Part shown: positions 1-39,915 of the stretch, piece after piece
Numbering within the stretch: position 1 is the first letter of the stretch
Layout: each line of letters opens with the position of its first letter
IMG/VR virus record: IMGVR_UViG_3300038436_000236
Location: 1-55,741 of that record
Origin: a virus
DNA: 55,741 nucleotides
Strand: one strand, 5' to 3'
Position numbers and translations under genes: made by a program
Notes under the pieces: model-generated
What the model saw: only the letters and a program-made list of their open reading frames with translations
What the model was told of the DNA's origin: nothing
Databases searched by the model: none

Positions 1-1428
1 CTGGCGATTGAGTTTCGCGATCTGCTGGTCGGTCCTGATCCGCTGGGTGATGTCGCGCATCACCACCAGGCAGCCGTTTATTTTTTTCTGTTCGTTGAGT
101 TGGGGAATAACGATGGATTCCAGGCAGATGGTTTCGCCATGGTCATCAGCGGGAAGTTCGACGGTCCCCTTGCGGATGGACAGGCTGGTAAAGGATTGCA
201 GGCAGAGACAGTCGGTCCGGGACTGGCCGGTCGTTTTGCGGCAGAAGTTGCATGATTTGCCGATGGCAACCGGGGCGAGTTTCAAGGCCGATTCATTGGC
301 CCAGGTAATGATAAAATGCCGGTCAACGAGAAAGATGTGGTCCGGCAGGCTGTTCAGAATATGGCGGTGCTGGATCTCGTTCTCGGACAGCGCCTTTTCA
401 GCTTCGGTCCGGACCTCGATTTCCTGGTTGAGTTTTTTGATGAGCTGGTCCTGGGTTGCCTTGGCATTTTCCAGGTTGCCGATCAGGTTCTGGAAGCTGA
501 ACGAGAGAAAAAGGATGCAGATGGCGCCAACACCGCCGCTGATCAGCAGCGACTGGATGATGAAATGTTTTTTTTCCGCGATTTCGTCCGAGATGTCCTG
601 GGCGGCGATGATGCCGCCGATGGGTTCCTGGAAACAGTTTTTAAACCCTTCGAGGGTGTGAATGAGATACGTCCGGCCATCTGCTTCCACCTGTTCGGCG
701 GCGTTGGTGAAGTTGAAGCCGGCCGGCAGAATCCCGGCTACCCGGGGTTCATCTTCAACAAGAGTATACCGTCCGTATGTCCTGCGGGTCTGTTTATTGT
801 TCGTAGCCCTGTGCCGGAAGGTATCGGCAAAGAAGGCCGCGGTCTCCTTGCCGGTGGTGCGGCGCAGTTCATCGACAATTTCTTCGGTTTTGATGCCGAT
901 CTCCACGGCCCCCACATATTCGCCCTTGTAGAAAACTGGGTGGATGATGCGGTAAAAGGCCCCTGAAACGCCGATTTCATAGCCGAAAAGGGGATTGAAG
1001 TTTTTATGGACATCCTGCACCGCCAAGCGTATGCCCCGCAGGTCGTCACCGTAAAAATCGGGCTTATGCATGCGCAGAAAGGTTCTGCCGTCCGGCAGGT
1101 GGAAATGCATGACATGAAGGTACGGGTAGGATTTTTTCAAGGCCTCATACATGGGACGGGTCAGCGTATAAAGCTGCTGCCTGTCCCCCTCGGCAAAGGC
1201 CCGGATATGTTCCGGGTTGTTTTCGATGTAATTCTGCAGCCAGTTGTTATAGATGGAAAAATAAAAGTGCTGGGTGGAGGTGAAGATGCGCTGGAAGTCT
1301 TTTTTTTCTTCCTTCAGATGGTAATTGATATGCTCATTGTAACCGGACACCTGATGCAGGGAATAGAAGAGCGCAAGAATGGTGATGAGAGAGGTGACAA
1401 GCAGAATGGCTTTTGTTTTAACTGTCAT
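1..1428 (-). CDS. Membrane sensor protein with double-Cache and PAS domains (partial, C terminus outside window)
   Basis: The frame is open from the left edge to an ATG, giving 476 residues; the output domain (histidine kinase, GGDEF or other) lies outside the window. Residues ~7-23 are a hydrophobic N-terminal helix, ~25-288 resemble a periplasmic double-Cache ligand-binding region (contains HLPDGRTFLRMHKP and GVSGAFYRIIHPVF), ~290-313 are a second membrane helix, ~315-345 a helical linker, and ~350-460 a PAS domain ending in the typical VVMRDITQR exit helix. The PAS region holds a Cys cluster (CNFC, then CLC ten residues on) that could bind metal or sense redox; this is inference. It is host DNA, outside the prophage. 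No strong ribosome-binding site is visible. Confidence 0.8.
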   Translation of the reverse strand, partial: MTVKTKAILLVTSLITILALFYSLHQVSGYNEHINYHLKEEKKDFQRIFTSTQHFYFSIYNNWLQNYIENNPEHIRAFAEGDRQQLYTLTRPMYEALKKSYPYLHVMHFHLPDGRTFLRMHKPDFYGDDLRGIRLAVQDVHKNFNPLFGYEIGVSGAFYRIIHPVFYKGEYVGAVEIGIKTEEIVDELRRTTGKETAAFFADTFRHRATNNKQTRRTYGRYTLVEDEPRVAGILPAGFNFTNAAEQVEADGRTYLIHTLEGFKNCFQEPIGGIIAAQDISDEIAEKKHFIIQSLLISGGVGAICILFLSFSFQNLIGNLENAKATQDQLIKKLNQEIEVRTEAEKALSENEIQHRHILNSLPDHIFLVDRHFIITWANESALKLAPVAIGKSCNFCRKTTGQSRTDCLCLQSFTSLSIRKGTVELPADDHGETICLESIVIPQLNEQKKINGCLVVMRDITQRIRTDQQIAKLNRQ

Positions 1429-1952: not shown

Positions 1953-2029
1953 GGGCGGGTAGCTCAGCTGGATAGAGTGTTGGCCTCCGAAGCCAAAGGC
2001 CGTGAGTTCGAATCTCATCCCGCCCACCA
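1953..2029 (+). tRNA. tRNA-Arg (anticodon CCG)
   Basis: A full 77-nt cloverleaf can be folded: acceptor arms GGGCGGG/CCCGCCC, D arm with AGCTCAGCTGGATAGAGT, anticodon stem TTGGC/GCCAA with loop CTCCGAA (anticodon CCG, reads CGG), T arm GTGAG-TTCGAAT-CTCAT with one G-T pair, discriminator A and an encoded CCA. It is intact. The phage integrase gene begins 140 bases downstream and points at it, so its 3' end is the likely integration site. In such cases the 3' part of the tRNA can be supplied by the phage att core. Confidence 0.97.
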
Positions 2030-2169: not shown

Positions 2170-3330
2170 CTACTGGACTTTGTCGGGCTTATCTGACATA
2201 AACGGTAGCTTATCTTCCAGGATTTCAAATTCTTCTTCTTTTGCCACCAGGTGGGTGTAGTGCTCAGTCATTTCAAGGTCGGAGTGCCCGAGACGGTCGC
2301 GTGTGTCCTCTTTCGAGGCCCCGGACCCTTGCAGGATGGTGGAAAATGTGTGGCGGGCATCATGTAGGCGGATGTTGTAGCCGTGCTGGACGAAAAACTT
2401 TTTTATCTGGTCGGTGATTGTGCTCGGGTGGTACTGCTGCACTACGGGGCCGGACTTTTTAGAGAGCTTCAGCAGTTCGGTGTATAGTCTATGCCCGATT
2501 CCTACCTTGCGCGGCTTTCTGTTTTTGGTGATTGAACCGGGGAGGTTGATCAGGCGGTGGTCGAGGTCTATCATTGACCATTCGAGTTTTAAGAGTTCTG
2601 ACCGACGCATTCCACATCCGAAATAAAAGAGCAGGAACAGTTCGAGGAAACCACCGAGGCGGATTTTCCCTTTTGCTTTTTTGTCGTTTTCTGCTGCGAA
2701 CTGCAGGAGTATTGAAACATCCTGCGCGGTAATGGCTGTCGGTTTGAATTTTTCGTGATCGTCGATTTTGAGAGAAGGGACCCGCGCCATGGGGTTTACT
2801 GTCACAACGCCATTTGCAAGGGCGAGATCGAAAAGTCGCTTGATTTCCTGCACATGCTTGTTGACTGTCGGCTTTGACAGGCCGCGTTCTTCGGCGAGGA
2901 CGCGCCGGAGCCTGATGCCGTCCTGATGGGTAAGGGATGCGATCCTTGTTTTTTCTCCCCATACTTGCGCGATATTCTTCAGGCGGCTTTTCCGGCTCTT
3001 GATTTCTGCGGCGCTCACGTCCCACGATTCCTGATAGTCTGTTATCGCTTCTTGCAGGTTTTTTTCTTGCGCGTTGCCTGCGCCTAGTCGTGTGGCGTCC
3101 TCTTTCGATATGAGCCCTTCGTTTTGCCAAACGATCAGGTCTTTTGCATCGTATCTGAGGCGCGATGTCGCTGCCTCAATTTCTGTTGCTACTTGCTTCT
3201 TGTGCTGGGAGAGGATTTTTTTTGTGTATGTGCGATAGCGATAAATTATCCCGCCGTCCGGAAAACAAACTTTGAATGTGAGCCGGTAAATTGAGGAGTC
3301 GCGTTTTTTGTAGACTGACAGCTTTACCAT
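2170..3330 (-). CDS. int: Tyrosine recombinase, phage integrase
   Basis: Site-specific recombinase that would integrate and excise the prophage at the tRNA-Arg. The C-terminal catalytic domain shows the expected residues: Arg242 in GCGMRRSE, His323 and Arg326 in LHDARHTF, His349 in LGHSD and nucleophile Tyr358 in EHYTH. Residues ~90-180 form the SAM-like core-binding domain and the first ~60 residues look like an arm-binding region. The 386-residue length is normal for the family. The start codon is 6 bases downstream of the stop of the HTH gene, so the two probably form one leftward operon. The gene reads towards the tRNA. Confidence 0.95.
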   Translation of the reverse strand: MVKLSVYKKRDSSIYRLTFKVCFPDGGIIYRYRTYTKKILSQHKKQVATEIEAATSRLRYDAKDLIVWQNEGLISKEDATRLGAGNAQEKNLQEAITDYQESWDVSAAEIKSRKSRLKNIAQVWGEKTRIASLTHQDGIRLRRVLAEERGLSKPTVNKHVQEIKRLFDLALANGVVTVNPMARVPSLKIDDHEKFKPTAITAQDVSILLQFAAENDKKAKGKIRLGGFLELFLLFYFGCGMRRSELLKLEWSMIDLDHRLINLPGSITKNRKPRKVGIGHRLYTELLKLSKKSGPVVQQYHPSTITDQIKKFFVQHGYNIRLHDARHTFSTILQGSGASKEDTRDRLGHSDLEMTEHYTHLVAKEEEFEILEDKLPFMSDKPDKVQ

Positions 3331-19506: not shown

Positions 19507-21108
19507 ATGAAAAAAGAAGCTGAGAAGTGTGCGATGTTCGGTGATACTTTCTACCCGTCATCGCCTGCGGTCATTGGGAAAATGATCAAAAAAGTTCATA
19601 AATCTGCAAATAAAATCCTTGACCCTTCTGCGGGGATGGGCGCTTTGATCGAGGGGTATATGGAGCGGTATTCTAGGTATAATATGCCTGACATATCCGC
19701 AATCGAAATTGATAAGGATTTGCGTTCGGTGCTCAGGGGGAAAGGAATCAAGGTTATTGATACTGATTTTCTTGCTTTCTCCGGGCCTGATAAGTTTGAC
19801 CTTATCATCGCAAATCCGCCGTTCAGGGACGGCGACAAGCACTTGCTCAAGGCAATTGAAATAATGTACCGCGGGCAGATTGTTTTTTTGCTCAATGCCG
19901 AGACGATCAGGAACCCATGCACGAATACTCGCAAAGAGCTGGTGCGAAAGCTTGAAGAGCTTGGCGCGGAAGTTGAGTATATTCATGATGCGTTTGCTGA
20001 TGCCGAAAGACCTGCATGCGTTGATGTCGCGCTGATCGACATCCGCATCAACAGGAATGTCGAAGAGGATTTGTTCGCAGGGGCTGACGATGTGGCTGCA
20101 GGGTGTACGGAAACAATCCGGGGAGCCAATGAACTCGCTACCGGGAAGGGCGTTTATGAGCTTGTTGCGGAATATAACCAGGTGGTCAGTATCTGCATGG
20201 AAACAATCGTTTCCTATTTCCGCAATTACCGAAAAGTGTGCAGTTACGTGGCGATCAATCGTGAAGCTGAAAAGTGCAATTACATGAAGGGCGACCTTAC
20301 CGACGAAATGCAGGGAATCGTTAATAAAATGCTTACTTCTGTCCGTAGGGATTTTTGGCGGAAAACGCTTGACCTGCGGGAGGTCGGCAGCAGAATGACT
20401 AAGAAAAAAATTGCAGAGTTTGAGCACGCCATAAATGAACGTTGCAATATGGATTTCACGGAAAATAATATTCGGGCGTTTGTCCTAAATGTTATCAGCG
20501 GATATGAAAAAACGATAACTGACGCGGTTATTGATATTTTTGATATGTTCACGGCGCGGCACGCATACGGGGAGATGGGCGTTTATGAGAAAAATATTCA
20601 CTACTTCAACGGCTGGAAAACAAACAAAGTTTTCAAGGTCTGTCGGCGTGTGGTAATCCCCGTTTATGGTAGTTTTGGCGGGGCGTTTAGATCGTGGGGG
20701 GCGTGGAAGCTAGATTACAGGGCGGCTGAGAAATTGCGCGACATCGATGTGGTCATGAATTATTTCGACGGGATGAGCAGTTATGTCTCTATCAACAAGG
20801 CCCTGGAGGATGCTTTTGCCAGGGGGGAATCGAGCAAGATAAGAAGTACATACTTCACGATAACTGCCCATAAAAAGGGCACGATTCATCTGACCTTCAA
20901 TGATGACGACATCCTGCGGCGGTTCAATGTCGCGGCGTGCTCCGGCAAGGGCTGGTTGCCTGGTGATTACGGGCGGACTGAATATGCGAAACTGTTGCCG
21001 GAAGAGAAGACGGTTATTGATGAGTTCGAGGGGCGGGAAAGCTATGACGAAAATCGCGTGAAACCTGTTTTCCCGCAGTCGGTCAAGGTGCTGAAGATCG
21101 CGGCGTGA
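19507..21108 (+). CDS. DNA adenine methyltransferase-type protein with DUF4942 domain
   Basis: 533 residues. The N-terminal ~190 residues are a class I methyltransferase: SAM-binding DPSAGMGAL at 39-47, EID acidic motif at ~67, and catalytic NPPF at 103-106, the N6-adenine type. Residues ~240-530 match the DUF4942 domain often fused to or beside such enzymes in phages (EFEHAINERCNMDFTENNIR, FNGWKTNKVFKVCRRVVIP). Probably modifies phage DNA against restriction. AAGGAAAC precedes the ATG. Confidence 0.8.
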   Translation: MKKEAEKCAMFGDTFYPSSPAVIGKMIKKVHKSANKILDPSAGMGALIEGYMERYSRYNMPDISAIEIDKDLRSVLRGKGIKVIDTDFLAFSGPDKFDLIIANPPFRDGDKHLLKAIEIMYRGQIVFLLNAETIRNPCTNTRKELVRKLEELGAEVEYIHDAFADAERPACVDVALIDIRINRNVEEDLFAGADDVAAGCTETIRGANELATGKGVYELVAEYNQVVSICMETIVSYFRNYRKVCSYVAINREAEKCNYMKGDLTDEMQGIVNKMLTSVRRDFWRKTLDLREVGSRMTKKKIAEFEHAINERCNMDFTENNIRAFVLNVISGYEKTITDAVIDIFDMFTARHAYGEMGVYEKNIHYFNGWKTNKVFKVCRRVVIPVYGSFGGAFRSWGAWKLDYRAAEKLRDIDVVMNYFDGMSSYVSINKALEDAFARGESSKIRSTYFTITAHKKGTIHLTFNDDDILRRFNVAACSGKGWLPGDYGRTEYAKLLPEEKTVIDEFEGRESYDENRVKPVFPQSVKVLKIAA

Positions 21109-28846: not shown

Positions 28847-28865
28847 ATTGCTGGGGGGTGTTATT

Positions 28866-30272
28866 ATGGCTCAGATTGAAAACCATCCGGAATATGCGGG
28901 ACGGGCGGCTGATTATATTTATTACCGGGACCACTTCGAGGGCGGGAGGAACTACGCGAATAAATCGGAAAAGTATCTGCCGAAATTTTCGCTGGAGAGC
29001 GACGAAGCTTATAAAAACCGAAAGGACAGGTCGGTTTATATCAACTATTGCGAAACGGTGATTTCTATTTACCAGGGCGCTATCTGGAAAATTGCACCGT
29101 CTCGGGTGCTGCCTGATAGCCTGGCTGGTTTCGGCAATGACGTTGACCTCATGGGCACCTCGGCCAATGATTTCTTTATGGGAGTCACGGAACAGGCCCA
29201 GGCGGTCGGAATGCATTTTGTCATGGTTGACGCTCCGGTGCGTGAGGATGATGGCATGACGGTTGGCGATGCTAAAAAGTCGCGCCTGCGACCGTATGTC
29301 GCTGGGATTCCTGCGGAGAATGTCAAGGCGTGGTCAATCGAGACTGAGGACCCGGCAAGAATCGGACAGTTTAACTTTTTGGTGATTGAGGAGACTTTCT
29401 ATTCAGGCAATGATCCGGCTGTCAAGATGGTGCATGAAACCCATGCTCGCGTCCTCTATCCGGACAAGTGGGAACTGTATAAAAAAGAGGGGACCGGATA
29501 CACGCTACTGAAAAACGGTGTGAATAAAATAGGCGAGGTCGCTGTGGTCCCGTTCTATGGACGGCGGCGCGGGCATTTCGACGGGGAAAGCGATCTGAAA
29601 GAAATTGCATCTCTGGCTCAGAAGATCGCGAATTGGGTGTCTTGGCTTGACGAAGATATGCTTTATCATGCGGTGCGACAGCTGGTCATCAAGACGAATC
29701 AGGACATCACAAAAATGGGCATCGGCTCTAATCGTGCTATTCGGTTAAACCCTGACGATGGCGAGCATGCTTTCATCCTGGAGAGCGCGGGGAGCGCGTC
29801 AAATGAGCTGTGGAGTTCGGTCGTCAAGCTGCAGGATTTGATTTTCCGGCTTGCCACGAATCAGATCGCAAGCGTCAAAGAGACGGCGCAGGTTGAATCT
29901 GCTGAAAAAAAGGAAGCGGACTATAAAGAGCTGGTCAGCCTTTTGAAAAAGAAGGCTGGCTCATTCGAGCGATCGGAGAAAAAGGTATGGGAATTGATGG
30001 CGAAGTTCGCGGGCGTCGAGGGCTCTGAAATTGACGTGTCTTACCATCGGGAATTTGAAATTACGGAGCGCACCGTTGAGGGGTGGCGGGAATTAATCGG
30101 AGCGGGGATTTTGTCCGTCATTGATTGGTATATGGCCGAAAATCCTACTGTCACGGACGCGAAAGAGGCGGAAAAGCTGCTGAAAGAAAACCTCAAGCTC
30201 CGGGCGCTGGTAAATGACAAGGTCGGCATTGGCGATATGCTGGCGGGGGCTGGCGATGGGGGCGCGGAATAA
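28866..30272 (+). CDS. Portal protein, DUF4055 family
   Basis: 468 residues. IENHPEYAGRAADYIYYRDH and SVYINYCETVISIYQGAIW at the start, then the long helical stem and LVIKTNQDITKMGIGSNRAI in the middle, fit the DUF4055 portal family. Forms the dodecameric DNA gate at the head vertex. Directly follows terminase, the normal order. Confidence 0.8.
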   Translation: MAQIENHPEYAGRAADYIYYRDHFEGGRNYANKSEKYLPKFSLESDEAYKNRKDRSVYINYCETVISIYQGAIWKIAPSRVLPDSLAGFGNDVDLMGTSANDFFMGVTEQAQAVGMHFVMVDAPVREDDGMTVGDAKKSRLRPYVAGIPAENVKAWSIETEDPARIGQFNFLVIEETFYSGNDPAVKMVHETHARVLYPDKWELYKKEGTGYTLLKNGVNKIGEVAVVPFYGRRRGHFDGESDLKEIASLAQKIANWVSWLDEDMLYHAVRQLVIKTNQDITKMGIGSNRAIRLNPDDGEHAFILESAGSASNELWSSVVKLQDLIFRLATNQIASVKETAQVESAEKKEADYKELVSLLKKKAGSFERSEKKVWELMAKFAGVEGSEIDVSYHREFEITERTVEGWRELIGAGILSVIDWYMAENPTVTDAKEAEKLLKENLKLRALVNDKVGIGDMLAGAGDGGAE

Positions 30273-30273
30273 A

Positions 30274-30543
30274 ATGTCCGAACAGTTCGAGCTAGATATT
30301 GCAAAGAAGCTGAACAAGCATCTTGATGAGCAAGACGCCCACCAGGACGTGGTTAAAGCGTGGTTCGCTGGATGGTTCGAAAAGAATCTTGATCCTGTCG
30401 CGCTGGCGAATGAGCCGGACAAGTATCTTGACGAAATGGGCGAAAAGGCGATTGCGGCTTTCCGGGTCCGGTTCCTTCCTGCTATCGAAAAGATGGGGAG
30501 TGAATTCGGGAAATCAATCTATGAAAAGGCGGTTGAAAAATGA
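30274..30543 (+). CDS. Hypothetical helical protein
   Basis: 89 residues, all-helical and charged (MSEQFELDIAKKLNKHLDEQ, AWFAGWFEKNLDP). Placed between portal and the DHH enzyme; stop overlaps the next start. Perhaps a small head-assembly factor; not recognised. Confidence 0.6.
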   Translation: MSEQFELDIAKKLNKHLDEQDAHQDVVKAWFAGWFEKNLDPVALANEPDKYLDEMGEKAIAAFRVRFLPAIEKMGSEFGKSIYEKAVEK

Positions 30544-31397
30544 AATGTTTTTACCATTCGAGGGACCTTGACGGGCACTGCGCCGGGGCTATCGTGAAGA
30601 TGTTCAACCCGGAATGCGAGCTGATCGGAATAGACTATGATCAGCCGTTTGACATGAGTTCAATCGGTCTGCTGGAAATCATCTATATGGTCGATTTTTC
30701 TTTGCCTGTTGCGCAAATGCTCGAACTGCAGGACTTTTCAGAATTGATCTGGATTGACCACCACAAGACCGCTATGGAGGCAAAGGAGCTTGCCGGGGTA
30801 CTCGGGAAAAGGGGCGTTGATTTTTCCGGGTGTGAGCTGGCGTGGATGTATTTTGCCCCTGGAACGCCTATGCCGCCTGCCGTGTATCTGCTCGGGCGGT
30901 ATGACGTGTGGGACCATTCGGCTAACCCTGACGTGCTGCCTTTTCAGTACGGCATGAAGAAGTTCAAAAGCACTGCGCCTGAGCGGGCGGGGTGGCTGTG
31001 GCAGATGTTATTCAGCGCCGGGTGGGATGACACGATAATCAAAGAGATCTGCGAGGCTGGCCGGTATATCGAGGATTACGAGCGGTCAAAGTCTGCATTC
31101 GCTGCTGGGATTACGGCGTTCGAAACTTATTTTGCTGGTCATCGGGCTATCGCGATGAATGTGTGGCCTGCAAGCTCTATCATGTTCGCTTCTGTTTTTG
31201 ATCCGGCGCGGCACGATATCATGGTTGCGTTCGGGATCGTCCGGGGCAAGTGGTCAGTGTCGGTTTATGGCGGGAATAATGAGGTTGACGCGGGGGAGAT
31301 CGTCAAGCGATACGGGGGCGGCGGTCATAAAAGCGCTGCTGGTTTCGTCTCTGACGTGTTGCCTTTCAGTTGCGGGGTTGATGAGGTGGCTGCATGA
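30540..31397 (+). CDS. DHH/DHHA1 family phosphoesterase
   Basis: 285 residues. Metal-binding motifs are intact: HSRDLDGH at 6-13, VDFS at ~51-54, DHH at 73-75; C-terminal DHHA1 motif GGGGHKSAAGF at 259-269. Family members degrade short RNAs (NrnA), pAp or cyclic dinucleotides. In a phage head block it has no structural role; it may recycle nucleotides or remove signalling nucleotides. Substrate not deducible. Confidence 0.85.
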   Translation: MKCFYHSRDLDGHCAGAIVKMFNPECELIGIDYDQPFDMSSIGLLEIIYMVDFSLPVAQMLELQDFSELIWIDHHKTAMEAKELAGVLGKRGVDFSGCELAWMYFAPGTPMPPAVYLLGRYDVWDHSANPDVLPFQYGMKKFKSTAPERAGWLWQMLFSAGWDDTIIKEICEAGRYIEDYERSKSAFAAGITAFETYFAGHRAIAMNVWPASSIMFASVFDPARHDIMVAFGIVRGKWSVSVYGGNNEVDAGEIVKRYGGGGHKSAAGFVSDVLPFSCGVDEVAA

Positions 31398-31582
31398 GCG
31401 ATAGCATAAAAGACCTTGGCCCGCGGCTGGATGGTTGCCGCGCTTATCCTGGCGGTAAAGTCCCGGTGACGTGGTGTAAGGAAAATCAAGGAGAATGGTG
31501 CGGGCGGTGTAAAAACAGGAGGGTTAAGAGGGGCGGCGTGCTTCAAGTGCGTGACGGTGTGGTGGGAACGGTGGCGGCATGA
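31394..31582 (+). CDS. Small Cys-containing protein
   Basis: 62 residues with four Cys (GCRAYPG, VTWCKENQGEWCGRCKNR), a possible zinc knuckle. Overlaps both neighbours by 4 bases, which supports translation. Function unknown. Confidence 0.55.
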   Translation: MSDSIKDLGPRLDGCRAYPGGKVPVTWCKENQGEWCGRCKNRRVKRGGVLQVRDGVVGTVAA

Positions 31583-32214
31583 TCCATATGAATTTGAGGA
31601 AAGAAGGTGCTTGGCATATCAGTTTCCCGGCTGGGGGGTTGACGTTGCCTGCTTCGTTTTTCAAGTACGCGGCTGAAGTCCTGGTAAAGGATATTCAGGG
31701 CCGGATGAATCGCGGCGTTGGCGCTGATAATCAGTTGATGGTCGATAATGCGGCGAACACGCGGAGCGCGGCGGGGTATGCTGGGCAACTCGGGAAGCTT
31801 AAAAAGGCGGGGACGTATGGAGGGAAGAGCTTCGGCGAGCGAACGGGGTGGAAGCGTAAGCGGCCTTCGGTGGCTTCCGGCTGGCTGCGCGATCATATCA
31901 AAGTTGCCTCGGTCGGCGTAAATGGCGCTGTTGTCCATGTCGAGGATGCGCCTTACCCTGATAGCGAGTATGGTGCAACAACCCTGATGGCGGCAAACTT
32001 TCTGCAGGTCGGGACCAAGGCGCATGTGATCCGGCCACGCGGGCAATGGCTGCTCAGGTTCCCCACGTCCAGGGGGGTTGCTTTTGCAAAACAGGTGAAT
32101 CATCCGGGTACTGTTCCGCGTGCCTTTTTCGGGATTTCGCCTGCCTATGAGAAGCAGATGATGAAGCGGGTCGAGCAGATCATCAGCAAGATTATCGAGG
32201 ACGGTTTTAAATGA
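31579..32214 (+). CDS. Phage virion morphogenesis-type protein
   Basis: 211 residues. Basic, with HVEDAPYPDSEYG in the middle and NHPGTVPRAFFGISPAYEKQ near the end, the pattern of virion morphogenesis/tail-completion proteins (Mu gpG type). Coupled to the MuF polyprotein by a 4-base overlap. Confidence 0.6.
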   Translation: MIHMNLRKEGAWHISFPAGGLTLPASFFKYAAEVLVKDIQGRMNRGVGADNQLMVDNAANTRSAAGYAGQLGKLKKAGTYGGKSFGERTGWKRKRPSVASGWLRDHIKVASVGVNGAVVHVEDAPYPDSEYGATTLMAANFLQVGTKAHVIRPRGQWLLRFPTSRGVAFAKQVNHPGTVPRAFFGISPAYEKQMMKRVEQIISKIIEDGFK

Positions 32215-35200
32215 GCAATTCGAATGATGGGCTGTCAAAAGATGACCTGTATAAAAAATATAATATCGTCAAGATGGAGCTGGAGATTACCGGCGCGGAG
32301 CTGAAAAACAAAATCGGGAAAACGAAAATTTCCGTTTCCGATTATGTTTCCAGGCTGAAGGCGCAGGGGATGAGTGCGAAAGACATTCAGGCCCTGCTTA
32401 TCTCCGATTTGAAGACTGGTGGCCCGCTGTTCTCTGAGCTGCGGGCCACGTTCGTTTCCCCGTTCTCTTCTTCTGCTTCGAGGATTACCGCGACGGTTGC
32501 CAATTTTGCGGCTGCGGGCGGTGATGCGGCTCAGAAAATGGTTTGGATCGCGTCGTTCAAGAACACATGCACTTCCTGCGTTCCACGGCATGGGGTTGCA
32601 AAGTCCTATGCGGAATGGGTCAAGGTTGGGCTCCCTGGGAATTTCGGCTCGTATTGCAACGGCTATTGTCAGTGCCGGCTGTTCCCGATTGAATACCCTG
32701 GCGTTGCTGACATGAAACTGCCGAATAATCGGAAGCAGTGGAAGGCATTGATGACGGGCGGGGATAAGGGGAAATTGCCGGGTGCCCTGGCCGAGGCTGA
32801 AAGGTTGCTGGCGAAGCAGCAGAAGGTTGTCGCTGTGCGAATAGCGGCGGCGGAAAAGCATGCTGCCGACCTTGAAGAAAAGGCGAAGAAGCTGAAAGAC
32901 GATATCGAGATATCGCAGCAGGCCCTGGCGGCACAAAAAACGCTCCAGGACGCGGCGAATGATCACCTGGCTACGCTCACCTTCATTGCTGACGGAAAAA
33001 CGCCTACGCCTTCCGTGCTGATCCCTGGTAACGGCAATATACTCGGCGGCGGACGGGCTACTGTTCAGAGCTGGAAGAGGTTCAGAAAAACGGTCAAGGA
33101 CGAACCTGATTTTGTCCTGCCTGCCCATCTGGAGGGGAAAAAGGAACTTGCGTCCGGCGTGATCATCAAAGAGGCGGACGGTAGAATATGGCTCGTTGAG
33201 CCTCGGGACAATTTCGGCGGTTATAAAATGACCTATCCGAAAGGTCGGCTTGAGTCTGGCCTTACCCCTGCTCAGAACGCGGTGAAAGAGGCGTATGAAG
33301 AAACGGGGCTCAAGGTCGAGCTGACTGGATTTGTCGGAGATTACGAAAAGACGGAAACTTTCACGCGGTATTATGTCGGGCGGCGGGTCGGCGGAGATCC
33401 GGCTTTCGCCCATTGGGAGAGTAACAGGGTCCGGCTGCTCACACCTGATGAAGCGCGGAAATATCTGAATGTGCCTGTTGACCGGGAAATCCTTGACGAT
33501 TTCCTTGCTGGTGGACAGCGCAAGGAGCTTGCGGATAGGCTGCGGCTGATCCCTGGGAGCCAGAAGGGGACGAACGCGGGCGGCATGTATGTCGATTCGG
33601 TGTCTGGCGAGAAGTACTATGCAAAGTTCTACGGGGACGCGAAACAGGCGCGGTCTGAGTTTGCCGCAAACGAGATAGGCAAGGCGCTTGGCGTACAGAC
33701 CCCTGAAAGTCAGTTGCTTGAAATGGTAGGGCCTGGCGGGGAGGCGCGGCTTGCTATCGTCACGAAGTGGGAAGATGGGCTTGAACGGCTGAACTTGCGG
33801 AATAATACTTTGCTGCTGGAGAACGCGGAAGAGCTTGCAAAGCATCATCTGAATGCTGCGCTGGTGGCAAATTGGGATGTTGTCGGGTTCGAGTTTGACA
33901 ACCTGCTGCGGATGCCAAACGGCAGGATTGTTGTTGTTGATTCTGGCGGCGCATTCAGGTTCCGGGCTCAGGGCGCGGGGAAGGCGTTCGGGCGCGATCC
34001 TGCGGAGTTCGACAGCCTGCTTGATTCTGCGGTCAATCGGCAATCAGGTTCCGTTTTTTCTCCTGTCGTTGAGGGCTACACGTCAAAGCAGCCGGAAAAG
34101 CTCATCGTCTGGCTGCGTGGACTTGATGATGCTGCTATAAGGGACGTATTCGACCGGTCCGGGGTCCGCGACTGGGAGTCGATGGCGGAAATTACTGCTG
34201 CCCGGCGCGACGCTCTGATCAAAAGACTTGAGCGGTATATCGAGCGGCCCAAAGAGACGGATGCACGGGTTATCGTCAGCATCAAGGAGGCTGTTGAAAA
34301 AATCAAGGCGTCGCGGCTCAACGGGTATGCTATCCCCCTTGATGAGGATGATATCGAGGATGTGTATGTTCTCTTTTGGGAGGAGATCGGAGCGGACGGA
34401 AATAAGAAGCTGCGGGCTCGGATGAAATTGACGCCGCGCGGCGGTGAAAAGGTCGATGCTATCTTGCTTGATGAGCTTGGCGCACCGGCTGTGACTTCGG
34501 CGAGGAGGTTTTCGAAAACCGGGCCTCAGCCTTTGAGCGATGATTTCTACTATGACAAGGTCATGGCCGGGGTAAAGAATATTGCTTACCATGTAAAAGA
34601 CGGCGTCTATAACCTTGAGAAAATTGCACTCATGAAGGCGCAGGAGGTGCCGCTTAAAAAATTGATGGCAAGCGGCTCAGTGCAGCAGAAGCAAATGGCG
34701 ATGAAATATTTGTACGCGATAGATGACGCGGAAAAGGCCATGGCTGCGAAAGGGATGCCGGGGAAGCTAGAGCAGTTCCTGTATGAGGCCCCCAAGGGCA
34801 ACGTTGAATCGGTTGCGGAGAAAGTGCGCGGGGCGGCTCGGCCAAAGGTTGAACCGTTTCGGGCTGAGGGTAAAGCTGTTGATAATGGCAAGGCTGCGGT
34901 CCATGGGGACAACACCCCTTCCTACCTGTCTGATCAGCGGCTATACTCTTTCGATTTGTCCGGGGACGTGACGGCCCGCTATGTCCCGTGGGGCTACGGA
35001 GCGAACAAGTATGCCTTGCGCGGGCAGATGGATTTGTTCATTGATGGGGGCGCGACTGAAAAAAATATTCAGGACGCAATTGATGCAATCGCTGATCTTG
35101 GCATCAAGAATAAGATGGCTGATCCTGACTATATCGAGCTGGTCTATCTGCATAAGCACGCTTATCTACGCGGTGACGATCTGAAGGCGGAATACCTGGT

Positions 35201-35906
35201 GATCTGGAATAATACATCCCTGCAGACGAAAGAGAAGGTCGAGAAGATCAAGGACTATTTCGAGGCTGACGGGTTAAAAGTTCGGGGGAATCCTGCTTAT
35301 ATGCCGATGGGGGAGTATAATCATTTTGGCCAGGGGCGTATTGTGTGGCGTCGGTTCGATATCTCTCGGGAAAAAATCAAGGAAGAAATGCCGGATTTCC
35401 GTATTTATCATTCTCTGACTGGTGGCGCGTCTGTGGATAAATTGATTGATAATGTCTTGAATTCTGGTGGCGAGTTTTCCGCGACGAATGAGCGGCTCAG
35501 GCGCGGGATTAACGCTTTAGGTACAAGCTCACAAGAGGCGGATATGAGCACGGGCGGTGCTGGGTATTTTTTCACGCGTATAACAAAAAGCGCAGCCAGA
35601 AAAGGGGCGATTGAATGGGATGTGTCAGAACTTTCCCGAATTGACTCTGTCAGTTACGAAGGAGACTTTTACGGTGAGGTTAAAGACAATTCAGTAATCC
35701 GCCGAAGAAAAATAAATATATCTGGGTGGAAAGCGAATGCTGCATTCGGTTCTAACGAGACAATTTTCAAACATGGTTTGGATATCTGGCACGTTACCGC
35801 GATTAATACAAGCAGCCTTGTTGAGCGGTTGAAGGTTCTTGATGTGTTCAGGAAGCATAAGATTTCCGAAATAAACGGGAAAAAAATTGAGGATATAGTC
35901 AGATGA
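32211..35906 (+). CDS. Giant MuF/SPP1 gp7-like head polyprotein with NUDIX and HipA-like kinase regions
   Basis: 1231 residues. ~80-160: MuF/gp7 head-morphogenesis domain with the Cys motif CTSCVPRHG...CNGYCQC. ~195-260: coiled coil. ~313-430: NUDIX hydrolase-like region with box KGRLESG...KEAYEETGL (Lys replaces the usual Arg). ~447-620: HipA/PI-kinase-like fold with Lys471 in YYAKF, Glu483, NWDVVGFEFDNLL and VVVDSGG as DFG-like motif. ~700-1060: unassigned. ~1063-1231: C-terminal domain starting RIYHSLTGG with GGAGYFFTRI and SNETIFKHG, possibly an effector domain. MuF proteins are known carriers of polymorphic toxins; a small overlapping gene follows, as an immunity gene would. Toxin activity is inference. 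Confidence 0.75.
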   Translation: MSNSNDGLSKDDLYKKYNIVKMELEITGAELKNKIGKTKISVSDYVSRLKAQGMSAKDIQALLISDLKTGGPLFSELRATFVSPFSSSASRITATVANFAAAGGDAAQKMVWIASFKNTCTSCVPRHGVAKSYAEWVKVGLPGNFGSYCNGYCQCRLFPIEYPGVADMKLPNNRKQWKALMTGGDKGKLPGALAEAERLLAKQQKVVAVRIAAAEKHAADLEEKAKKLKDDIEISQQALAAQKTLQDAANDHLATLTFIADGKTPTPSVLIPGNGNILGGGRATVQSWKRFRKTVKDEPDFVLPAHLEGKKELASGVIIKEADGRIWLVEPRDNFGGYKMTYPKGRLESGLTPAQNAVKEAYEETGLKVELTGFVGDYEKTETFTRYYVGRRVGGDPAFAHWESNRVRLLTPDEARKYLNVPVDREILDDFLAGGQRKELADRLRLIPGSQKGTNAGGMYVDSVSGEKYYAKFYGDAKQARSEFAANEIGKALGVQTPESQLLEMVGPGGEARLAIVTKWEDGLERLNLRNNTLLLENAEELAKHHLNAALVANWDVVGFEFDNLLRMPNGRIVVVDSGGAFRFRAQGAGKAFGRDPAEFDSLLDSAVNRQSGSVFSPVVEGYTSKQPEKLIVWLRGLDDAAIRDVFDRSGVRDWESMAEITAARRDALIKRLERYIERPKETDARVIVSIKEAVEKIKASRLNGYAIPLDEDDIEDVYVLFWEEIGADGNKKLRARMKLTPRGGEKVDAILLDELGAPAVTSARRFSKTGPQPLSDDFYYDKVMAGVKNIAYHVKDGVYNLEKIALMKAQEVPLKKLMASGSVQQKQMAMKYLYAIDDAEKAMAAKGMPGKLEQFLYEAPKGNVESVAEKVRGAARPKVEPFRAEGKAVDNGKAAVHGDNTPSYLSDQRLYSFDLSGDVTARYVPWGYGANKYALRGQMDLFIDGGATEKNIQDAIDAIADLGIKNKMADPDYIELVYLHKHAYLRGDDLKAEYLVIWNNTSLQTKEKVEKIKDYFEADGLKVRGNPAYMPMGEYNHFGQGRIVWRRFDISREKIKEEMPDFRIYHSLTGGASVDKLIDNVLNSGGEFSATNERLRRGINALGTSSQEADMSTGGAGYFFTRITKSAARKGAIEWDVSELSRIDSVSYEGDFYGEVKDNSVIRRRKINISGWKANAAFGSNETIFKHGLDIWHVTAINTSSLVERLKVLDVFRKHKISEINGKKIEDIVR

Positions 35907-36247
35907 TATCTGCTGAACTGAAAAATAAAATTGGCGCTCTGGTTGACAGCGGAAGTGTTTTTACGTTCCACGAAATGGATATCGCGCCGGTGGTCGGGCT
36001 CATTGATTTTGGCGATGATACAATTTATTGGTGCGACTGGTTCCCAGAAGATCAGCACCATTTCCATGTTTTGGTTGTCTATGGGGTGAGGATGATCAAC
36101 AAATGGAATTTTGAGTTGCTCACTGACAAGGGGAGGGTTTCGTTGAACGCGCTTGAACCGTATGAGGAGCGGTACAAATTGAATTGGCAACGGTGGGTTG
36201 ATTGTAGGGGCGGCTATAAAGAAGATTTGCGACGGATAACCGAATAA
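35903..36247 (+). CDS. Small acidic protein, candidate immunity partner of the MuF polyprotein
   Basis: 114 residues, overlapping the polyprotein stop by 4 bases. Contains FTFHEMDIAPVVGLIDFGDD and IYWCDWFPEDQHHFHVLVVY, an SMI1-like mixture of acidic and aromatic residues, but I do not recognise the family. Its position directly behind the polyprotein C-terminal domain is the classic place for an immunity gene. Confidence 0.5.
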   Translation: MISAELKNKIGALVDSGSVFTFHEMDIAPVVGLIDFGDDTIYWCDWFPEDQHHFHVLVVYGVRMINKWNFELLTDKGRVSLNALEPYEERYKLNWQRWVDCRGGYKEDLRRITE

Positions 36248-36574: not shown

Positions 36575-36793
36575 ATGAGCAGAAGTATGGCTATACAAAA
36601 TAACGCTTCAACGGACGAAGCGGGAACAGATATTGCTACTCAGGGGCTTCATGCTGCGGCTGGGATAATTTCAATGACTGAGCGGTTCCTTGACGGTTTC
36701 TCCTCAACGCAGCTTGCTCGTGACGACATCGAGATTGTACAGCAGAGCTGTGTCGGAACTCGGATGTTGATTGATGAGGTTCTCAACAGGTAA
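36575..36793 (+). CDS. Small hypothetical protein, paralogue of the gene at 37155
   Basis: 72 residues. The C-terminal third (DDIEIVQQSCVGTRMLIDEV) matches the end of the protein at 37155 (EKEIIQQACGAISSLIDVAL). Transcribed away from imm and followed by a terminator, so it is a single-gene unit. Function unknown. Confidence 0.6.
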   Translation: MSRSMAIQNNASTDEAGTDIATQGLHAAAGIISMTERFLDGFSSTQLARDDIEIVQQSCVGTRMLIDEVLNR

Positions 36794-36989: not shown

Positions 36990-37058
36990 ATGCCCACGGC
37001 TAGGCTCTCGCATTTCTTTTTGGGCGGGCCTGGCGGGGAGCTTTCGGGCTCGCCGGTT

Positions 37059-37077
37059 CTCGAATCCGGTCTTGCAA
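37059..37077 (+). promoter_or_regulatory. Target site of the C4-like RNA
   Basis: CTCGAATCCGGTCTTGCAA, complementary to the C4-like RNA. Its first seven bases can also pair in cis with ATTCGAG at 37138-37144, which is the ribosome-binding region (GAGGTG) of the gene at 37155. RNA binding and cis pairing exclude each other, so this could be a translation switch. Confidence 0.55.
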
Positions 37078-37154
37078 CCTGCCAGGTTCCGTCCTTTTCG
37101 TTTGCAAGCGTTGGGGACTGAATTTCCAGCATTCTCTATTCGAGGTGTAGTGTC

Positions 37155-37379
37155 ATGCAATCCAAAAACGTCATAGACTTGAATAATCGTAGTAACCTTG
37201 GGGCGCGCCCTGCAACAAGCGGTCTTCCTTGTGAGAATATGTTACGGCAGGCGTCTGGAGTTGCAAAGTTGGTCGATATGTATCTTGACAACGGGGTCAA
37301 TACTGTTGCCGAAAAAGAGATCATTCAGCAGGCGTGCGGTGCAATTTCAAGCCTGATCGATGTGGCGTTGCATAATTAA
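37155..37379 (+). CDS. Small protein controlled by the C4-like RNA (paralogue of 36575)
   Basis: 74 residues; GAGGTG 8 bases before the ATG. N-terminal part is polar, C-terminal EKEIIQQACGAISSLIDVAL is helical and shared with the 36575 protein. In P1-type immunity regions the gene after C4 is icd/ant; this protein does not resemble Icd, Ant or KilA-N proteins. Followed by a terminator, so only this gene is in the unit. Confidence 0.6.
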   Translation: MQSKNVIDLNNRSNLGARPATSGLPCENMLRQASGVAKLVDMYLDNGVNTVAEKEIIQQACGAISSLIDVALHN

Positions 37380-38080: not shown

Positions 38081-38854
38081 ATGCCTTTCAAAGCAAAAGT
38101 TGATGAAAACGGGTTTGTGGTGGTCAAAGACGGCAATGCGGTGTTGCTCAACGACGCAGGGGAAGAGGTCATGTTCACGGCACCTGAGAAGGTCAGCGAG
38201 CTTAACCGGGAATCTGCGAGCCGCAGGCATGAAATCAAAGAGCTGAAAGAAAAGCTCTCGCCGTTTGATGGCCTGGATGCTGCCGAAATCAAGGAGCTGA
38301 AGGCGTTCAAGGAGAATAACAAGGACGCAAAAACTCAAATCGAGCAGATCAAGGCTCAGATCGCCAAAACCTACGAGGAACAGATCGCCGGGAAAGATTC
38401 CGTCCTTTCGGAAAAAGATAAGCTGATCCGCAAGTTGTCTGTCTCAAATCAGTTTGTCGGGTCAAAGTTTTTGACGGAGAACACCGTTTTGCCGGCTGAA
38501 ATCGCTGAAGCGTATTTTGGCCAGTATTTCGAGGTGCGGGACGGCGGGTCTGTGGTCGCAAAGTTCGGAGGCAATGATATTTATTCCAAGACCAAGCCGG
38601 GGGAGCTGGCTTCGTTCGAGGAAGCGATTAAGCACATTGTCGAAAATTCCGCGTTCAAGGACGCGATCATGCGTGATCCTGGCCAAAGCGGAACGGGAGC
38701 GCTGGGTGGACAGAGAAAGCCCGCGACGGGCGGCGGGGTGAACCCGTGGATGAAGGAAACAAGAAACCTCACTATGCAAAGTAAAATTGCCTCGGAAAAC
38801 CCGCAACTCGCCAGCAACATGAAGGCGGCGGCGGGAATTCAGACCGGGGCGTAA
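38081..38854 (+). CDS. Scaffold-like protein
   Basis: 257 residues. Long coiled coil ~45-125 (EIKELKEKLSPFDGLDAAEI, KTQIEQIKAQIAKTYEEQIA), helical C terminus with GGQRKPATGGG. Placed directly before the capsid gene, with the length and composition of internal scaffolds that shape the prohead. ATG has GGAG 10 bases upstream. Confidence 0.7.
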   Translation: MPFKAKVDENGFVVVKDGNAVLLNDAGEEVMFTAPEKVSELNRESASRRHEIKELKEKLSPFDGLDAAEIKELKAFKENNKDAKTQIEQIKAQIAKTYEEQIAGKDSVLSEKDKLIRKLSVSNQFVGSKFLTENTVLPAEIAEAYFGQYFEVRDGGSVVAKFGGNDIYSKTKPGELASFEEAIKHIVENSAFKDAIMRDPGQSGTGALGGQRKPATGGGVNPWMKETRNLTMQSKIASENPQLASNMKAAAGIQTGA

Positions 38855-38874: not shown

Positions 38875-39915
38875 ATGCCCCCCACTTTAGGCGCAGATAT
38901 CACAATTGTTCCGGAAGAATTTCTTCCCCATGTAATCGAGTACTCCACGAAGTTGTCGGCGCTTGTTCAGGCTGGCATCGTTATTCCTGACCCTGTTTTC
39001 GACGCGGAAGCGAAGAAGGGCGGGAAGCTGATTGATATGCCATTCTGGAAGGATGTCGATGATGATTCGCAGGTCATTGACGACACTGTTGACACCACTA
39101 TCAACCCCATTGACCAGAGCGGTGATATTGCGGTCAAGCTCATGCGGGAAAATGCGTGGGGTGCGTCTGACCTGTCCGCTGCCCTGGCCGGGTCTGATCC
39201 GGTTGACTCTCTGGCTCAGATGATCGGCGGGTACTGGGCAAGGGAGGAGCAGCGCGTTTTGATGTATGTTCTTAACGGGGTGTTTGCCGACAACCTTGCG
39301 AATTTCACGGGTGATCTGATCTATGACGCGTCGGTCGCTGATATTGCCGACGCGACATATGGCAACTATCTCTCCGGCGAGGTCATCATCGACGCAAAAT
39401 CGCGGCTTGGTGACGCACACGGGAAATTGACGGCGATTGCTATGCATTCCGTGCCGTACCACAACCTGGAGAAGCTCGGCCTGGTCAAGTATATCCAGAC
39501 CATCAGCACTGACGGCACGACCACGACCACGTCCGTGGCGCAGGGCGAGCCGAATCTTGTTGCAACCGGCATTCCTACCGTGTTCGGTCGGCGTGTTGTG
39601 GTTGACGACACGCTGCCCGCTGTCGCCGTGACTGGTGGGTACAAATACACGTCTTATCTGTTCGGGGCTGGCGCGATTGCCCGCGGTGAAGGTACGCCGA
39701 AGCACCCGTTTGAGATGGCGCGTGTCGCAAAGCGCGGAATCACAGAGATCTACCACCGAAGAAACTTCATTCTGCACCCGCGTGGTGTCAAGTTCCTTAA
39801 TGCCAGCGTTGCAAAGCAGTCGCCGACGAATGCGGAACTGGCCCTTGCCGCCAACTGGTCGAGGGTGTGGGAAAAGAAAAATATCCGGATTGTCAAGCTG
39901 GTAACGAACGGATAA
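38875..39915 (+). CDS. Major capsid protein
   Basis: 346 residues. EFLPHVIEYSTKLSALVQAG, LIDMPFWKDVDDDSQVIDD, ENAWGASDLSAALAGSDPVD and a C-terminal THEMARVAKRG-like stretch (PFEMARVAKRGITEIYHRR) match a Gp13-like/HK97-fold capsid family common in temperate siphoviruses. Followed by a strong terminator, as usual for the most expressed gene. Confidence 0.8.
   Translation: MPPTLGADITIVPEEFLPHVIEYSTKLSALVQAGIVIPDPVFDAEAKKGGKLIDMPFWKDVDDDSQVIDDTVDTTINPIDQSGDIAVKLMRENAWGASDLSAALAGSDPVDSLAQMIGGYWAREEQRVLMYVLNGVFADNLANFTGDLIYDASVADIADATYGNYLSGEVIIDAKSRLGDAHGKLTAIAMHSVPYHNLEKLGLVKYIQTISTDGTTTTTSVAQGEPNLVATGIPTVFGRRVVVDDTLPAVAVTGGYKYTSYLFGAGAIARGEGTPKHPFEMARVAKRGITEIYHRRNFILHPRGVKFLNASVAKQSPTNAELALAANWSRVWEKKNIRIVKLVTNG

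What the first reader, a model, noticed from the sequence alone, without database searches (positions are those of the whole stretch)
32211..35906. 1231-residue MuF polyprotein combining head-morphogenesis, NUDIX and HipA-like kinase regions with a C-terminal effector-like domain
MuF proteins enter the virion and are known to carry toxin domains. Here several enzyme-like regions are joined, with recognisable kinase residues (Lys471, Glu483, NWDVVGFEFDNLL, VVVDSGG) and a NUDIX box in which Arg is replaced by Lys. If packaged, they could be injected with DNA and act on the host at once.
Basis: partly seen in the sequence, partly recalled or inferred. Interest (0 to 1): 0.75.

Follow-up and report, generated by a model that had tools for sequence, protein, structure and literature searches.

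The report
Phage head effector with coupled partner
A prophage gene encodes a probable head protein that joins a NUDIX enzyme, a HipA-like kinase and a C-terminal enzyme-like domain that folds somewhat like the DNA-modifying toxin DarT, followed at once by a small gene that looks like its antidote; the same kit recurs, rearranged, in hundreds of phages.

Summary
The ORF is real (32211-35906, 1231 aa; 72% identical full-length ortholog; purifying selection on every domain that could be measured). NUDIX is certain. The kinase is confirmed: AF2 pLDDT 93, kinase-fold matches, HipA_C sequence similarity, conserved active site in 147 relatives. The N-terminus is a divergent MuF domain (probable). 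The 'effector-like' C-terminus is a conserved domain (57 non-redundant relatives) with invariant H1067/Y1119/E1183; its only credible solved-structure matches are DarT ADP-ribosyltransferases (Foldseek prob 0.6-0.8); sequence support is weak. (1) It is a recurrent kit: the kinase accompanies this NUDIX in cis or trans in about 90% of NUDIX loci, and 61 of 75 non-redundant kinases carry or neighbour either an R-S-E ADP-ribosyltransferase or this C-terminal domain. In Yersinia phage fHe-Yen8-01 the homologous ART-kinase and NUDIX proteins are annotated 'particle associated'. (2) A small gene (35903-36247) overlaps the stop by 4 nt; its family follows this C-terminal domain (63 of 84 loci) and never the other ART (0 of 108): a candidate immunity protein. 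Best reading: a MuF polymorphic/polyvalent effector, new variant of a known kind. Catalysis, packaging and immunity are inferred.

The parts
32211..35906 (+). MuF-NUDIX-kinase-CTD effector ORF, 1231 aa
   Evidence: ortholog L168 72% identical over 1231 aa; dN/dS 0.07-0.20 where dS is measurable
32211..32765 (+). N-terminal region (residues 1-185), divergent MuF head-morphogenesis domain; Cys/CRL motif at residues 106-165
   Evidence: hhalign vs 111 MuF domains P 5e-5, prob 67; four control families P>=0.048; 36 of 57 NR relatives of the CTD have MuF in the same ORF; no direct Pfam hit
33120..33503 (+). NUDIX domain (residues 304-431), box with Glu->Leu and Arg->Lys
   Evidence: Pfam PF00293 9.5e-13; closest solved relative Ap4A hydrolase 3i7u 1.7e-9; metal Glu residues 99/99
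33537..34130 (+). HipA-like kinase domain (residues 443-640), K472/E483/D556/N564/D577
   Evidence: AF2 pLDDT 93 pTM 0.87; PDB kinases E about 1e-4, prob 1.00; HipA_C in 54/78 relatives, best 6.8e-6; 491 relatives in IMG/VR
34278..35393 (+). conserved middle block (residues 690-1061) linking kinase and CTD; 'SRxNGY..D..DIED' motif, helical segment, beta domain
   Evidence: alignments A8/A9 of 32-34 loci; kinase-CTD spacing 398-476 aa in nearly all; AF2 pLDDT 89.7
35394..35903 (+). C-terminal domain (residues 1062-1231), ART-like, H1067/Y1119/E1183
   Evidence: H 66/67, Y 70/71, E 71/71; Foldseek DarT hits prob 0.47-0.84, TM(target) 0.26-0.54; hhalign to DarT best of ten families, P 0.01
35903..36247 (+). 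translationally coupled small gene, 114 aa, candidate immunity/partner protein
   Evidence: ATGA overlap; L168 homolog 53%; family follows the CTD in 63/84 loci, 0/108 R-S-E ART loci; leave-out subfamily profile finds it at 5e-5
31579..32214 (+). neck/tail-completion-like gene immediately upstream (context)
   Evidence: phrog_5 E 0.009
28848..30272 (+). portal protein (context)
   Evidence: phrog_145 1.7e-66
38081..38854 (+). head scaffolding protein (context)
   Evidence: phrog_206 7.6e-22
38875..39915 (+). major head protein (context)
   Evidence: phrog_247 7.6e-91

Best explanation
A late-expressed, probably head-associated multidomain effector of a temperate siphovirus. The divergent MuF N-terminus attaches it to the head (inferred), so that it enters the next host with the DNA (inferred). 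There the C-terminal ART-fold domain, resembling DarT, would use NAD+ to ADP-ribosylate a host protein or nucleic acid through H1067/Y1119/E1183 (fold and residues: moderate evidence; activity inferred). The HipA-like kinase is a second active enzyme (active site shown; substrate unknown), and the NUDIX domain would hydrolyse an ADP-ribose or dinucleotide product (inferred). The small gene coupled to the stop codon makes a cognate neutraliser that protects the producing cell or lysogen from the C-terminal domain (inferred from strict co-occurrence). MuF, NUDIX, kinase and ART are exchangeable modules of one widespread phage kit, fused here but split into neighbouring genes in other phages.
For: Domain evidence. 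The C-terminal domain's best credible solved-structure matches are five DarT structures (ranks 13-19, prob 0.63-0.84) plus M. tuberculosis DarTG (0.47); DarT was the best of ten families in profile comparison. Kit evidence: kinase fused to NUDIX in 55 of 79 NUDIX loci and in a neighbouring ORF in 15 more. Of 75 NR kinases, 33 have an R-S-E ART in the same protein, 7 in a neighbouring ORF and 21 the CTD, with one protein holding both; 14 have neither. 48 of 57 NR CTD proteins contain a kinase of one of two related subfamilies, the same superfamily by profile comparison (E 2.8e-45). Particle association annotated for the ART-kinase, small and NUDIX proteins of phage fHe-Yen8-01. Partner gene; the CTD and the partner are the fastest-evolving parts (63% and 52% identity to L168). 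Temperate lifestyle: integrase and recombination directionality factor, next to tRNA-Arg.
Against: No virion proteomics or activity data for this phage. Foldseek E-values for DarT are 0.24-0.6, behind spurious meganuclease hits (low prob) drawn by the multidomain model; Pfam, including DarT and ART families, does not hit the C-terminal domain, and a whole-genome DarT-model search did not ring on the C-terminal-domain loci. The full-family leave-out profile of the partner genes did not recover the window's gene; only the subfamily profile did. The small gene could be a chaperone or packaging adaptor rather than an antidote. Some CTD proteins have no kinase (Pan1, L170, L182).
Confidence: 0.6

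Rival explanations
1. Non-toxic host-takeover protein: as T4 Alt does, it modifies host proteins to help infection, and the small downstream protein is a chaperone or packaging adaptor that keeps the C-terminal domain folded or silent in the producing cell.
For: In related phages the kinase is joined to an R-S-E (Alt/VIP2-type) ART and these proteins are annotated as particle-associated; several relatives carry counter-defence-like modules such as the anti-CBASS family Acb1.
Against: The partner is specific to one ART class (0 of 108 R-S-E loci) and is fast-evolving, which fits immunity better, though it does not exclude a chaperone.
Confidence: 0.25
2. Counter-defence enzyme set: NUDIX, kinase and C-terminal domain degrade or modify NAD-derived immune signals (for example ADPR isomers), rather than macromolecules.
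For: Nudix proteins packaged in virions have been proposed to counter NAD+-ADPr immune signals (PMC9503650); Acb1 occurs fused in 4 of 32 relatives.
Against: Does not explain the near-constant HipA-like kinase or the C-terminal-domain-specific coupled partner gene.
Confidence: 0.11
3. Mainly structural MuF protein whose C-terminal modules are decayed remnants.
For: Many MuF proteins of proteobacterial phages have C-terminal extensions without known domains (PMC5576092); two NUDIX-box positions deviate from the consensus.
Against: Catalytic residues conserved; dN/dS 0.07-0.20 in measured segments; the same combinations recur independently.
Confidence: 0.04

Closest known systems
MuF polymorphic toxins of temperate phages (Jamet et al. 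2017, PMC5576092)
   Same: MuF N-terminus, variable C-terminal enzyme, temperate phage; ADP-ribosyltransferases are 14% of the 191 described MuF toxins
   Different: That paper's text mentions neither kinase nor Nudix; here two further enzyme domains lie between MuF and the C-terminal domain, and the C-terminal domain is not in Pfam
Polyvalent proteins of phages and conjugative elements (Iyer et al. 2017, PMC5512222)
   Same: Many enzymatic domains in one virion-associated polypeptide, including ART, kinase and MuF fusions
   Different: Their kinase family (Kinase-PolyVal, PF18762) is not this one: no Pfam match in 78 members at E<0.5, hhalign P 0.12. Their ARTs are H-Y-D (Tox-ART-HYD2); 'HipA' does not occur in the text
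Virion-packaged Nudix and ART fusions (Iyer et al. 2022, PMC9503650)
   Same: Nudix fused to MuF/portal and ARTs fused to MuF, proposed to be injected
   Different: HipA-like kinase linkage and a MuF-linked DarT-like domain with a coupled partner are not mentioned in the text searched
DarT of DarTG toxin-antitoxin systems
   Same: Fold signal; H...YF...E layout; a candidate neutralising gene next to it
   Different: Partner is not a DarG macrodomain-like protein by Pfam; no DarT Pfam match; fused to MuF, NUDIX and kinase
HipA kinases
   Same: Kinase fold and HipA_C similarity
   Different: Only the HipA_C-like core; no HipB partner seen; longer catalytic loop (Asp to Asn is 8 residues instead of the usual 5); fused in a phage head-cassette protein
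Pseudomonas phage Jeremy / Yersinia phage fHe-Yen8-01 ART-kinase plus NUDIX genes
   Same: Homologous kinase (31-38%) and NUDIX (45-49%)
   Different: Split over three genes and joined to an R-S-E ART instead of the DarT-like domain

Membership tests
MuF polymorphic toxins | MuF domain at the N-terminus | tested here: inconclusive
   No Pfam hit; hhalign P 5e-5 vs controls >=0.048; relatives with the same C-terminus hit Phage_Mu_F in 22/26
MuF polymorphic toxins | C-terminal toxin domain with enzymatic signature | tested here: inconclusive
   Conserved H/Y/E, DarT-like fold signal; toxicity not tested
MuF polymorphic toxins | adjacent immunity gene | tested here: inconclusive
   Strict co-occurrence with the C-terminal domain; neutralisation not tested
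MuF polymorphic toxins | temperate phage | tested here: met
   Integrase phrog_1 1.5e-48, recombination directionality factor PF18897 8.7e-39, tRNA-Arg beside the integrase
Polyvalent proteins | several enzymatic domains in one virion-linked polypeptide | tested here: inconclusive
   NUDIX, kinase and ART-like domain present; virion location not shown for this phage
Polyvalent proteins | Kinase-PolyVal (PF18762) kinase | tested here: not met
HipA kinase superfamily (fold/core) | HipA_C-like kinase core with intact active site | tested here: met
   54/78 relatives match HipA_C, best 6.8e-6, window itself only 0.27; related K2 subfamily vs HipA P 6.9e-6; kinase fold
HipAB toxin-antitoxin system | HipB antitoxin partner and HipA N-terminal domains | tested here: not met
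   No Pfam match to such domains in the ORF or the downstream gene
DarT | match to DarT family model | tested here: not met
   No PF14487 match
ART superfamily | ART fold with conserved NAD-binding/catalytic residues | tested here: inconclusive
   DarT prob up to 0.84, TM(target) about 0.5; H/Y/E conserved; NAD+ use untested
NUDIX hydrolases | NUDIX fold and box GX5EX7REUXEEXGU | tested here: met
   PF00293 9.5e-13; E->L and R->K variants are the rule in this family; metal Glu 99/99

The most novel reading that the evidence does not exclude
An undescribed, widespread phage-virion system in which a HipA-like kinase and a NUDIX enzyme are functionally tied to ADP-ribosylation: the kinase is nearly always coupled to one of two unrelated ART classes, and the DarT-like class carries its own dedicated antidote gene, so kinase, NUDIX and ART act as one injected pathway (for example modify, phosphorylate, trim) on the same host target.
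Probability: 0.3. Interest if true: 0.85.

Novelty: new variant of a known kind. Interest (0 to 1): 0.62.

Why it matters
If right, phages of many bacterial groups pack a pre-made multi-enzyme kit that combines phosphorylation, ADP-ribosylation and nucleotide hydrolysis, with an antidote for lysogens. It gives a function-testable family for hundreds of unannotated phage head proteins, a possible DNA- or RNA-modifying ART delivered at injection, and a simple pair (C-terminal domain and small protein) for bench work.

Tried and rejected
Single-sequence viral scan with the C-terminal domain found nothing; an alignment was needed. PDB sequence search with the CTD profile: only haemagglutinin chance hits. 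Foldseek meganuclease hits at the top rejected: probability 0.12 or less, TM about 0.1, spanning several domains. Partner-gene PDB hits to designed SAKe proteins rejected as 20-residue composition matches. Kinase-PolyVal membership rejected. Papers on fHe-Yen8-01 proteomics are not in the library. BFVD search gave no confident named match.
Full report
What is there. The window is a temperate siphophage-like genome from IMG/VR: integrase on the minus strand (2170-3330) beside a tRNA-Arg gene (1953-2029), a recombination directionality factor, DnaB-like helicase, terminase, portal, scaffold, major head protein, a 983-aa tape-measure protein and tail tip proteins. The ORF in question, 32211-35906, lies between a neck-type gene and the scaffold/major head genes, where MuF-type minor head proteins sit. 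It is a genuine gene: phage contig L168 has a co-linear 1231-aa ortholog at 72% identity, with dN/dS of 0.07-0.20 in the five of six segments where dS could be estimated; in the middle block synonymous change was saturated, but amino-acid identity is 71%.

Domains. NUDIX (304-431) is certain; its closest solved relative by sequence is an Ap4A hydrolase. Its box has Glu->Leu and Arg->Lys, but these are traits of a family of at least 99 phage NUDIX domains that all keep the metal-binding glutamates. The kinase (443-640) was aligned with 75 relatives and folded at pLDDT 93. Foldseek finds protein kinases, including FN3K and CtkA, at probability 1.00, although the best E-values are only about 1e-4 and TM-scores about 0.5. 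Sequence places it nearest HipA: 54 of 78 members match HipA_C, best 6.8e-6, although the window's own copy reaches only 0.27. K472 and N564 are invariant in the 78-member alignment, and E483, D556 and D577 are conserved in 146 of 147 relatives. The N-terminus is a divergent MuF: no family model hits it, but profile comparison with 111 MuF domains gives P 5e-5 with controls at 0.048 or higher.

The C-terminal domain. Residues 1062-1231 match nothing in Pfam. Iterated searches gave 89 ORFs, 57 non-redundant, in viral contigs and in prophage-like loci of Desulfobacterota, Verrucomicrobiota, Armatimonadetes and others. H1067, Y1119 and E1183 are nearly or completely invariant (66/67, 70/71, 71/71), with R1143, D1145 and G1099. 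An AF2 model of residues 690-1231 has pLDDT 89.7. In the PDB the only hits with probability above 0.6 among the 50 listed are DarT structures (0.63-0.84, TM normalised by target up to 0.54); their E-values, 0.24-0.6, are weak, and the model holds several domains. Profile comparison with DarT is the best of ten families tested, P 0.01, which is suggestive only. I rate an ART fold at about 0.7.

A kit, not a one-off. The kinase has at least 491 relatives in IMG/VR. Scanning with the NUDIX alignment instead, 55 of 79 new loci have the kinase in the same ORF and 15 in another ORF of the locus; two of the other nine (L094, L110) have the related second kinase subfamily and several of the rest are cut by contig ends. 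Order varies (NUDIX before or after the kinase), which argues for a functional tie. Of 75 non-redundant kinase proteins, 33 also carry an R-S-E ART, 7 have one in a neighbouring ORF, 21 carry the C-terminal domain described here, and 14 have neither, five of those being truncated ORFs; only one protein has both. Pfam on 32 relatives without this C-terminal domain finds ADPrib_exo_Tox in 17, WGR in 5, Acb1 in 4 and Phage_Mu_F in 4; on 26 with it, Phage_Mu_F in 22. Conversely 48 of 57 C-terminal-domain proteins have the kinase or its second subfamily (E 2.8e-45 between the two) about 400-480 residues before it in nearly all cases. The window and L168 are rare in holding NUDIX, kinase and C-terminal domain in one chain (5 of 57). 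In Yersinia phage fHe-Yen8-01 the ART-kinase protein, a small protein and the NUDIX protein are annotated as particle associated; I could not find the underlying paper.

The partner gene. The 114-aa gene 35903-36247 overlaps the stop codon (ATGA). Small ORFs follow other C-terminal-domain genes with the same coupling (30 with the same overlap). Their profile matches 63 of 84 C-terminal-domain loci and 0 of 108 R-S-E ART loci. This profile was built from downstream genes, so the first figure is partly circular; the second is a fair control. A profile built from 29 partners, nearly all of the second-kinase type and without the window or L168, finds the window's gene at E 5e-5 among 14,349 ORFs; a broader leave-out profile did not. 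Pan1 and L170, which have MuF and C-terminal domain but no kinase, also have a downstream small gene in the same similarity cluster, so it goes with the C-terminal domain. It and the C-terminal domain are the fastest-changing parts between the two orthologs. Together this is the pattern of an effector and its immunity protein, but a chaperone is not excluded.

Mechanism. Shown: the gene, the NUDIX and kinase domains, conserved active-site residues, conserved module linkage, temperate lifestyle. Inferred: head attachment by MuF, injection with DNA, ADP-ribosylation by the C-terminal domain, substrates of kinase and NUDIX, neutralisation by the small protein. T4 Alt is the known precedent for an injected ART (PMC5512222).

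Known or new. MuF toxins (PMC5576092), polyvalent proteins (PMC5512222) and packaged Nudix/ART fusions (PMC9503650) are known kinds; this belongs with them. What I did not find in the searchable papers is the HipA-like kinase as the common partner of NUDIX and two ART classes, the DarT-like C-terminal family, or its coupled partner gene. The library is partial, so I claim a new variant of a known kind, not a new kind.

Limits. Database scans return only the best 80 loci, so counts are samples; non-redundancy was set at 60-70% identity. Structure jobs were capped, so the C-terminal domain was never folded alone.

Noticed in passing
window 37017-37097 (+): C4 antisense RNA (RF01695, 48 bits, just over the gathering score) in a nearly gene-free stretch between the effector/partner pair and the scaffold gene; in phages P1/P4 C4 controls immunity or antirepressor expression.
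   Followed up: no
window 36575-36790 and 37155-37376 (+): Two small ORFs (72 and 74 aa) that look like paralogs of each other, flanking the C4 RNA.
   Followed up: no
window 30540-31397 (+): DHH phosphoesterase gene (phrog_4771 2.4e-34) inserted in the head-gene cassette between portal and neck genes.
   Followed up: no
window 1953-2029 and 1-1428 (-): tRNA-Arg(ccg) beside the integrase and, beyond it, a membrane sensor-like host ORF: the left edge of an integrated prophage; no second copy of the tRNA end was found in the window.
   Followed up: partly
L193-L226 (Desulfobacterota and other genomes): Prophage-like MuF proteins with HeH/SAP-like repeats and a second kinase subfamily (NHDGHxxQF...DKG) before the same C-terminal domain.
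   Followed up: partly
L001:7719-8222 and equivalents in L002, L004-L006: Unannotated protein of about 160-170 aa between the R-S-E ART-kinase gene and the NUDIX gene, annotated particle-associated in fHe-Yen8-01; possible packaging or partner protein.
   Followed up: no
alignment A10 members (e.g. L147): Kinase proteins also fused to WGR, anti-CBASS Acb1, topoisomerase IB, portal and intein domains in some phages.
   Followed up: no
window 19507-21108 (+): Methyltransferase with DUF4942 domain (PF13708 5.5e-33).
   Followed up: no
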